From Oscillospiraceae bacterium (lineage in GTDB: Bacteria > Bacillota > Clostridia > Oscillospirales > Ruminococcaceae), in the NCBI GenBank assembly GCA_017847835.1, contig JAGASH010000006.1, positions 1 to 64,000 on the forward strand: a stretch of 64,000 nt of DNA, given 5' to 3'. Below the pieces are notes generated by a model. The model was given only the letters and a program-made list of their open reading frames with translations. It was not told where the DNA came from and searched no databases. Shown here piece after piece: positions 23,950-47,105 of the stretch; position 1 is the first letter of the stretch; the number at the start of each line of letters is the position of its first letter. A program made the translations under genes and the position numbers.

Positions 23950-23970
23950 CAGAATTTCTACAAACACAAA

Positions 23971-24003
23971 AATCCCGCCGATTTCGCTTGGCGGGATTTT
24001 TTG
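23971..24003. terminator. Bidirectional terminator between ABC operon and nth
   Basis: AATCCCGCC (23971-23979) pairs with GGCGGGATT (23990-23998), followed by TTTTTTG on the plus strand and TTTTTGTG on the minus strand. Confidence 0.9.
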
Positions 24004-24019
24004 ATAATATTTAAAACAA

Positions 24020-24122
24020 AGGCTGGTGAGAAAGCTCCAGATGCTAGGAAGCGGCTCCACGGCTAGGCTTTGCGCCTGCCGTGGAGCCGCTGACAACGCA
24101 GATGGGGCTTTATCGCCAGCCT
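24020..24122 (+). repeat. Structured repeat element, copy 1
   Basis: About 103 bases that fold into one long nested hairpin. Outer stems: AGGCTGG (24020-24026) with 24116-24122, then AAAGCTCC (24031-24038) with GGGGCTTT (24104-24111, one G-U). Next comes CAGATGC/GCAGATG-like pairing with two tandem G-A mismatches (24039-24044 with 24098-24103). An internal loop (TAGGA against GACAAC) follows, then a 14-base perfect stem (24050-24063 with 24078-24091) capped by AGGC/GCCT. It starts two bases after the nth stop codon. Copy 2 is at 46915-47077 and shares only the loop signature. Confidence 0.75.
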
Positions 24123-24124
24123 GC

Positions 24125-24757
24125 TCAGCGGGATTTGTTATATTTGCAGATATCTTTCAGCGCGCACTCCTCGCACCTCGGAGCTCTCGCGGAGCAAACT
24201 CCCCTGCCGTGCCAGACAAGACGGTGACAGAAATTCAAGCCCTCCTCGGCGGGAATTATCGCACGAAGCTGCTTTTCGACTTGAACAGCGTCCGTGCCTT
24301 TCGCAAGACCGAGCCTGTTTGTAAGCCGGATAACGTGAGTGTCGCAGACCATTGCGGGCTTTCCGTAAAGGTCGCCGACAATCAGATTTGCCGTTTTTCG
24401 CCCAACACCCGCAAGTTTCACAAGCTCCTCGATACTGTCGGGGACAACGCTCCCATAAATATCGCGAAGCTGCCTGCACATCTCCACGATATCCCGAGCC
24501 TTTGTGTGAAACAGCCCGCAGGACTTTATGTAACCCTCAACCTCGGAAACCTCCGCGTCCGCGAAAGCCTCGATTGTCGGGAAACGTTCAAAAAGCGCGG
24601 GAGTTACTAGATTTACGCGCTTGTCTGTACACTGCGCGGACAATCTCGTTGCAATCAGAAGCTCGTGCGGCTTTTCGTAAACGAGCGCGCACTTTACCTC
24701 TGGATATTCAGCTTTCAGCCGCTCGATAATCTCCGCGGCAAGTTCTTTTTTCTTCAT
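24125..24757 (-). CDS. nth: Endonuclease III
   Basis: Base-excision repair DNA glycosylase and AP lyase for oxidised pyrimidines. 210 residues. The helix-hairpin-helix ELVKLAGVGRKTANLI carries the catalytic Lys, VCDTHVIRLTNRLG the catalytic Asp, and the C-terminal Cys cluster (C-X6-C-X2-C-X5-C, around CSARAPRCEECALKDIC) holds the 4Fe-4S centre. Its start overlaps the stop of the CBS-domain gene by four bases (ATGA). Last gene of the metG operon; the structured repeat at 24020-24122 lies in its 3' untranslated region. Confidence 0.96.
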   Translation of the reverse strand: MKKKELAAEIIERLKAEYPEVKCALVYEKPHELLIATRLSAQCTDKRVNLVTPALFERFPTIEAFADAEVSEVEGYIKSCGLFHTKARDIVEMCRQLRDIYGSVVPDSIEELVKLAGVGRKTANLIVGDLYGKPAMVCDTHVIRLTNRLGLAKGTDAVQVEKQLRAIIPAEEGLNFCHRLVWHGRGVCSARAPRCEECALKDICKYNKSR

Positions 24758-46914: not shown

Positions 46915-47077
46915 GGGGTTCTCTAAAAACCGGGACACGAGCAGATTTTCGTATATGACTTGTATCAGATGCAAGGCGTCAAACCGAAGGAATACTGTAT
47001 GTATTTCAAGGTTTGACAACGCAGCAGATGATACAAGTCATAGAAAAGCTGCCGTGAAGGAGGTTTTTAGGGGTTCC
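46915..47077 (+). repeat. Structured repeat element, copy 2
   Basis: About 160 bases, one nested hairpin. Ends CTAAAAACC (46923-46931) and GGTTTTTAG (47062-47070), bordered by direct GGGTTC copies (46916-46921 and 47071-47076) that could be a target duplication. Inner stems: CACG-A-GCAG (46936-46944) with CTGCCGTG (47049-47056), TTTTC with GAAAA, a 12-base perfect stem (46954-46965 with 47031-47042), CAGATGC (46966-46972) with GCAGATG (47024-47030) with two tandem G-A mismatches, loop AAGGC against AACGCA, and GTCAAACC (46978-46985) with GGTTTGAC (47010-47017). Lies in the NUDIX leader. Confidence 0.75.
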
Positions 47078-47105
47078 CTTTTGAATATAATACATATTAC
47101 ATTCT

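What the first reader, a model, noticed from the sequence alone, without database searches (positions are those of the whole stretch)
24020..24122. Two copies of a structured repeat share a loop signature but have different, compensated stems (copy 1)
The element at 24020-24122 and the one at 46915-47077 each fold into one long nested hairpin. The shared parts are CAGATGC-A/T-AGG on the 5' side and GACAACGCAG on the 3' side, and in both the pairing CAGATGC/GCAGATG contains two tandem G-A mismatches. The stems above and below are unrelated in sequence (GC-rich in copy 1, AT-rich in copy 2) but perfectly base-paired. Such compensation indicates selection for structure. Tandem G-A pairs are favourable in RNA when read in this orientation, giving kink-turn-like character. 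Copy 1 starts two bases after the nth stop codon. I know of no named family that fits.
Basis: partly seen in the sequence, partly recalled or inferred. Interest (0 to 1): 0.75.

Follow-up and report, generated by a model that had tools for sequence, protein, structure and literature searches.

The report
Portable hairpin shared by unrelated transposons
The window holds two short elements from two different mobile-element families that carry the same folded hairpin; the hairpin recurs in bacteria labelled as at least four phyla, inside elements that were likely moved by unrelated transposases, and it probably works as a single-strand (RNA) signal whose partner is still unknown.

Summary
Copy 1 (24020-24122) and copy 2 (46915-47078) share an internal-loop signature on stems that differ in sequence yet pair. 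A covariance model finds 16 places in the host genome (antisense duplicate dropped), matches in 40 of 43 genus genomes, and a broader model matches in 9 of 348 phylum genomes. The core also occurs in Negativicutes, Desulfobulbales and other deltaproteobacteria, Omnitrophota and Eremiobacterota. Covariation is strong (22 of 40 pairs), and wobbles are mostly G-T, rarely A-C, so the strand as read folds.

They are non-autonomous transposons. Type A (copy 1) shares ends (17 of 19 bases) and a target habit, duplication of a whole terminator palindrome, with an IS1182-family element of the same genus. Type B (copy 2) has another terminal repeat and 4-bp duplications. The deltaproteobacterial form has 8-bp duplications and the 13-base ends of an IS66 element. 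Neither IS carries the hairpin. One hairpin thus rides in unrelated frames. Its partner and task are unknown; an RNA role is inferred, not shown.

The parts
24020..24122 (+). Copy 1, type A element body: 103-nt hairpin. Outer stem AGGCTGG/CCAGCCT is the region of the right terminal repeat paired with an inner second copy of the left one
24038..24050 (+). 5' half of the loop signature, CAGATGCTAGGAA
24051..24090 (+). Inner stem, fast-changing but paired across copies, with apical GGCTAGGCTTTGCGCCTGCC (bulged T)
24091..24104 (+). 3' half of the loop signature, TGACAACGCAGATG
23996..24019 (+). Place where the outer left repeat (CAGYNTGTAKAAAAAGTC) sits in fresh copies; in copy 1 it is degenerate (inferred)
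23968..24002 (+). Terminator-like hairpin of the upstream gene (CCCGCC..GGCGGG + T run), the likely target; GCGGGATTT recurs at 24128-24136 to the right of the element, a possible remnant of a duplicated target (score 9; 0.5% of permuted pairs score 9 or more)
24125..24757 (-). nth-like gene (HhH-GPD); its C-terminus (..CKYNKSR) differs from that of the nearest relative, which lacks the element (..CKFKK)
46915..47078 (+). Copy 2, type B element, 164 bp, whole element foldable
46915..46931 (+). Type B left terminal repeat GGGGTTCTCTAAAAACC
47062..47078 (+). Type B right terminal repeat GGTTTTTAGGGGTTCCC
46966..46976 (+). 5' half of the loop signature in copy 2, CAGATGCAAGG
47015..47030 (+). 3' half of the loop signature in copy 2, GACAACGCAGCAGATG

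Best explanation
Both copies belong to families of short non-autonomous mobile elements that share one hairpin module, and the module's strand as read here appears to be kept folded by selection and probably acts as RNA once the element sits in a transcribed region. Shown: the shared loop signature with changing but paired stems, many dispersed copies, target duplications in relatives, and IS elements with matching ends for two of the frames. Inferred: copy 1's family was moved by an IS1182-type transposase into transcription terminators (copy 1 itself keeps at most a 9-base remnant of a duplicated target); copy 2's family was moved by a transposase not identified here; and the hairpin module is a passenger that MITEs of unrelated transposon families have taken up. 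Most likely mechanism, not tested: read-through transcripts of the element fold into the long hairpin, and the conserved internal loop (N-A-G-GA-A / U-GA-C-RAM with a second tandem G-A step) is bound or processed by a widely conserved bacterial RNA-binding protein or nuclease, which makes insertions tolerable to the host or the element's transcripts stable.
For: Covariation: 22 of 40 pairs with changes on both sides, score 0.480 against 0.154 shuffled and at most 0.071 slid (25 copies); across all frames 14 of 17 pairs, 0.682 against 0.182 (32 copies). The loop is near invariant in those 32 copies, and one copy (L225) swaps the loop's G-C for U-A. Strand: in six ungapped outer pairs G-T 64 against A-C 1 (79 type A copies) and 104 against 5 (44 deltaproteobacterial copies, many by descent); 184 against 32 in 88 model-aligned copies, 22 of 28 informative columns; the plus strand folds better. 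Mobility: 10 of 81 type A copies have flanking repeats scoring 10 or more against 0 of 399 permuted pairs, nine of them 14-29 bases, most being complete terminator palindromes; empty site in G018 against filled site in G062 beside nth; IS1182 element (NF033551, 379 bits, cut-off 270) with 17 of 19 end bases and a 34-bp duplicated palindrome; published IS1272 and TnSha1 insert into hairpins and terminators, and IS1272L has a tandem 25-bp left-end repeat as type A has (passages of PMC4923244 and PMC5678879). Type B: 13 of 20 distinct elements with an exact 4-bp duplication. Deltaproteobacterial form: 8-bp duplication, 56% identity against 25% (24 of 42 copies that keep a left end), and an IS66 element with the same 13-base ends and an exact 8-bp duplication. 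The hairpin is in neither IS.
Against: No transcript was seen. Type A shows no orientation preference (24 with and 22 against both neighbouring genes), and the deltaproteobacterial form is mostly antisense to its neighbours (19 against 3) with a crude ORF caller, so read-through mRNA would often carry the other strand. 64 of 81 type A copies show no detectable target duplication (score under 8). IS1182 transposases over the cut-off are in only 3 of 43 genus genomes, and none was found in the copy-rich G005, G006, G007, G010 and G013. Only 1 of 12 searched deltaproteobacterial-type genomes has an IS66 transposase. No partner protein is known.
Confidence: 0.55

Rival explanations
1. The hairpin acts as single-stranded DNA of one polarity (as attC sites or IS200/IS605 and REP hairpins do), during replication or transposition, not as RNA.
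For: Strand-specific folding fits ssDNA as well as RNA, because G-T wobbles are tolerated in both; the strand also folds as DNA at -43.1 against -37.8 kcal/mol for the other strand. IS1182-family targets are hairpins. Orientation to genes is unbiased in type A.
Against: No Y1 transposase (PF01797) in G000, G005, G007, G010 or G033; the identified partners are DDE transposases with target duplications; four unrelated frames would need the same ssDNA-binding factor.
Confidence: 0.25
2. The stems stay complementary through templated correction of quasi-palindromes (strand switching during replication), without selection for a folded molecule.
For: One type B copy (L232) has its second internal loop turned into a perfect match of the opposite arm, as such a switch would do.
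Against: The mismatched loop is kept in the other copies, across phyla; correction should remove G-T and A-C alike, yet G-T far exceeds A-C.
Confidence: 0.12
3. The conserved core is a transposase-binding site in double-stranded DNA, conserved by sequence, and the folding is incidental.
For: The core lies next to the ends in all frames; end sequences are conserved within a frame.
Against: The same core sits in frames with unrelated ends and different duplications, and is absent from the IS1182 and IS66 elements with matching ends; the stems covary.
Confidence: 0.06
4. A free-standing regulatory RNA gene family that is not mobile.
For: Strong covariation and orthologous retention at some sites, for example near nth in G000 and G062.
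Against: Dispersed copies, empty sites, target duplications; no recurrent neighbour gene that would suggest a regulon.
Confidence: 0.02

Closest known systems
IS1182-family elements (IS1272, TnSha1) and MITEs derived from them
   Same: Ends, hairpin/terminator targets, a second tandem copy of the left end (IS1272L, 25 bp); IS1182 elements of this genus duplicate whole palindromes
   Different: Type A is about 130 bp, has no gene, and carries a covarying hairpin that is absent from the IS; IS1272 replaces or deletes part of its target and makes no target duplication in those papers
IS66-family MITEs (deltaproteobacterial form)
   Same: 13-base ends GTAACTATCCAGC and 8-bp duplication as in the IS66 element L298
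   Different: Carries the hairpin; the IS does not
RNA-folding MITEs of bacteria (Correia/NEMIS, ERIC, BOX, QMITE2)
   Same: Short, intergenic, transcripts fold into long stem-loops, some cut by RNase III or E (passages of the review PMC10969869)
   Different: There the structure is described within one MITE family; here one loop signature with compensated stems is shared by MITEs with unrelated ends across phyla
REP/REPIN hairpins moved by RAYT (Y1) transposases
   Same: Dispersed hairpins of about 100 bp (recalled)
   Different: No Y1 transposase gene found in five carriers of the genus; target duplications; loop signature
Integron attC sites
   Same: Structure kept, sequence free, one strand meaningful (recalled)
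   Different: Single copies with target duplications; no array; no integrase search was made

Membership tests
MITE (any) | Short, no transposase gene, terminal inverted repeats | tested here: met
   No kept reading frame; inverted ends in types A, B and the deltaproteobacterial form
MITE (any) | Target site duplications | tested here: met
   For the families: type A 10 of 81, type B 13 of 20, deltaproteobacterial form peak at 8 bp. For window copy 1 only a 9-base candidate; for copy 2 no exact duplication
IS1182-mobilised MITE (type A) | Ends shared with an IS1182-family element | tested here: met
   17 of 19 bases against the L014 right end, element with NF033551 transposase; other ends 13-14 of 18-19
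IS1182-mobilised MITE (type A) | Active transposase in the same genome moves it | not testable with these tools
   Only a broken, below-cut-off relative in G000
IS66-mobilised MITE (deltaproteobacterial form) | IS66 ends and 8-bp duplication | tested here: met
   L298: both ends 13 of 13, flanks GAATATTT on both sides
Named Rfam family | Match at gathering score | tested here: not met
   0 in window; none over an element at relaxed thresholds except a 23.7-bit mir-252 chance-level hit over one copy
REP/REPIN with RAYT | Y1 (PF01797) transposase in carriers | tested here: not met
   Absent from 5 of 5 copy-bearing genus genomes searched (G000, G005, G007, G010, G033); 9 of all 17 genomes searched have one
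Kink-turn | Three-base bulge directly followed by tandem sheared G-A pairs | tested here: not met
   In the core loop a conserved G-C pair separates the 2x3 loop from the G-A pairs; consensus recalled
Integron attC | Paired R and L boxes, adjacent integrase or array | not tested
   Boxes recalled only; no integrase search made

The most novel reading that the evidence does not exclude
A portable structured-RNA module that travels independently of any one transposase: the same hairpin, recognisable by one internal-loop signature and sometimes bearing that loop two or more times in a stack, has been taken up by MITEs of at least four unrelated frames (IS1182-type, IS66-type, a 4-bp-duplication type and a TAGTGTCC-ended type in Selenomonadales) across at least four phyla, because it gives any transposon that carries it an advantage through a universally conserved host factor.
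Probability: 0.45. Interest if true: 0.85.

Novelty: new variant of a known kind. Interest (0 to 1): 0.7.

Why it matters
Bacterial MITEs are usually seen as stripped copies of one IS. Here a hairpin that neither matching IS carries is kept, fold and loop, in MITEs with unrelated ends and in distant phyla. If the module is an RNA, it points to an unknown, widely conserved partner that mobile elements exploit, and it gives an easy handle (a covariance model and thousands of natural variants) to find it. It also shows terminator-targeting IS1182 transposition with whole-palindrome duplication, and it warns that frames running through such elements can be annotated as protein ends.

Tried and rejected
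Coding: open frames run through several copies (for example RKPQMLGSATATSLCGCC...), but the frame breaks in copies with one extra base and the stem changes alter the residues. RAYT/Y1 mobilisation: rejected for the genus. Rfam: nothing at gathering score; at relaxed thresholds a weak STnc490 match in L046 lies away from the element. Named literature: the letters of the signature were searched in full text twice; of the titles listed (20 of 43 and 20 of 31 papers) none is about a bacterial repeat, and I opened none of them; three further topic searches gave no paper on such a module in their listings. Plasmids and E. coli genomes: no match to copy 1; IMG/VR: 0. Autonomous carrier: no recurrent transposase within 2.5 kb of the copies held, no hairpin in nine IS1182-like loci (one half-motif with a mismatch in L297 and in L273). 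L281 seemed by eye to lie before a 23S rRNA start (recalled); Rfam at E 0.001 did not confirm it, so I do not use it. Two of the named-scan matches look like chance, without an outer stem (L105 Lachnospiraceae, L154 Methanomassiliicoccus); of the other 114 of 116 matches 112 pair in 9 or more of 12 outer positions, one (L115) in 7, and one (L155) is cut by the contig end. Dropped rows: two type B loci mis-hit by the fuzzy pattern (L213, L226) and one deltaproteobacterial copy (L169) were left out of alignment A3. Match counts include antisense matches to the same copies (one search shows how common these are), so they are not copy numbers.

Full report
Observation. Copy 1 (24020-24122) is a single nested hairpin, -78.6 kcal/mol, z -12.4; the opposite strand reaches -68.8, z -9.2. 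Copy 2 is a 164-bp element, 46915-47078, with terminal inverted repeats GGGGTTCTCTAAAAACC / GGTTTTTAGGGGTTCCC. Both carry the two halves of the loop signature. In the window the halves taken alone are not rare with one mismatch; the two-part pattern occurs four times in the genome with 0 in the reversed control.

Family in the genus. The exact pattern is in 15 of 61 relatives, all of one genus; 0 of 24 genomes from other families of the order have it. Twenty-five type A copies align over 111 columns. RNAalifold gives 42 pairs, 22 with compensatory double changes. On a 40-pair structure 97.9% of cells pair, 22 pairs change on both sides, score 0.480 against 0.154 shuffled and 0.059-0.071 slid. 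Model R1 gives 17 matches in the host genome, 16 after dropping the antisense match of copy 1, and matches in 40 of 43 genus genomes (counts there include antisense matches).

Beyond the genus. 112 of 116 matches pair in at least 9 of 12 outer positions. These are mostly MAGs, so labels carry the usual binning risk; Omnitrophota and Eremiobacterota rest on one copy each. A model from 32 hairpins of all frames (A3; 95.4% paired, 14 of 17 pairs changed on both sides, 0.682 against 0.182) matches 9 of 348 genomes and 7 of 240 genera of the phylum: patchy, as for mobile DNA.

Anatomy of the module. Near invariant in A3 are ATGC-N-AG-GA-A on one side and T-GA-C-RAM-GCAG on the other. G16-C70 behaves as a pair: 31 of 32 are G-C, and L225 is U-A. 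So tandem G-A steps flank a G-C pair next to a 2x3 loop, and a second G-A step lies below it. Several type B and other copies carry a second loop of the same make, turned round (sequences). The apical part differs between frames.

Which strand. In six ungapped outer pairs of 79 type A copies there are 402 Watson-Crick, 64 G-T, 1 A-C and 7 other cells; in 44 deltaproteobacterial copies 146, 104, 5 and 9; in the remaining 23 copies 91, 30, 4 and 13; inner ten pairs of type A 660, 61, 19 and 50. In 88 model-aligned copies 184 G-T against 32 A-C, more G-T in 22 columns and more A-C in 6 (that alignment is fitted to a model that tolerates G-U). Cells are not independent events. A cruciform or blind templated correction would give equal numbers, so I read this as one folded single strand, RNA or ssDNA.

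Type A is a transposon. Conservation reaches from an outer left repeat (CAGYNTGTAKAAAAAGTC, about 24 bases before the inner copy) to the right end. For 81 copies the best flanking direct repeat scores 10 or more in 10, against 0 of 399 permuted pairs; nine repeats are 14-29 bases, mostly whole terminator palindromes, and they abut the two ends. 64 of 81 score below 8: old, or made without duplication. Beside nth, the nearest relative (nth 95% identical) lacks the element, another (G062) has one in the same place and orientation, and G018 shows an empty terminator there. In G033 an IS1182-family element (NF033551, 379 bits) of 1551 bp has an end matching the type A end in 17 of 19 bases and is flanked by an exact 34-bp palindrome duplication. 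L290 and L295, two more IS1182-like loci, also lie between repeated palindromes. Published IS1272 and TnSha1 target hairpins and terminators, without duplications there (passages only), and IS1272L doubles its left 25 bp. Against a live system: the transposase is over its cut-off in 3 of 43 genomes, and PF13751 is in 4 of 15 searched.

Type B. Twenty distinct elements of 90-296 bp with these ends; 13 have an exact 4-bp duplication, copy 2 does not. Eleven of 19 printed carry the signature within 3 mismatches. Its transposase was not found.

Deltaproteobacterial frame. 24 of 42 copies keep a left end GTAACTATCCAGC about 65 bases before the core; flank identity is 56% at 8 bp against 25% for permuted flanks, with no such peak at 7 or 9 (6 bp: 40% against 25%). 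One of 12 searched genomes has an IS66 transposase (PF03050); that element has GTAACTATCCAGC at both ends, 13 of 13, and an exact 8-bp duplication. In Selenomonadales the hairpin lies within ends TAGTGTCCCACCTCG, a further frame whose mover I did not seek.

Passenger. Neither the IS1182 nor the IS66 element has the two halves in order within 2 mismatches, nor have the other eight IS1182-like loci; no transposase recurs beside the copies. So the hairpin is not a remnant of these ISs.

What it does. I favour RNA: strand polarity, loop conservation and the example of RNA-folding MITEs cut by RNases (review passages). The orientation data do not help it: type A is unbiased and the deltaproteobacterial form mostly antisense to its neighbours. 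An ssDNA role remains open. The host factor is a guess.

Noticed in passing
L046 2351-2464 (host genome, contig C9 near its end): Weak match (27.1 bits, gathering 56) to STnc490, away from the hairpin, at a contig end; may mark an IS200-like end lost in assembly
   Followed up: partly
L232 1360-1518: Type B copy in which the second internal loop has become a perfect complement of the other arm, as expected from a template switch
   Followed up: partly
L043 and L046, 1501 onwards: Type A copies with extra sequence, up to a further hairpin, inserted in the apical loop
   Followed up: no
L106 4541-4604 and L170 3459-3535: Short type A forms that keep the ends and parts of the loop signature but have lost most of the inner stem
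   Followed up: no
L290 1289 and 2842; L295 1333 and 2787: IS1182-like loci between repeated 20- and 30-base palindromes: whole-palindrome target duplication seems usual in this genus
   Followed up: partly
L085, L096, L112, L122, L150, L167: Deltaproteobacterial copies at the same place behind a RelA/SpoT-like gene (by eye) in several genomes, with compensated outer stems
   Followed up: partly
window 24026-24610 and other loci: Open frames run through the element; such read-through could be annotated as spurious protein ends
   Followed up: partly
L279-L285: Further carriers in the phylum with other outer stems, possibly more transposon frames, some with two or three stacked loops
   Followed up: no
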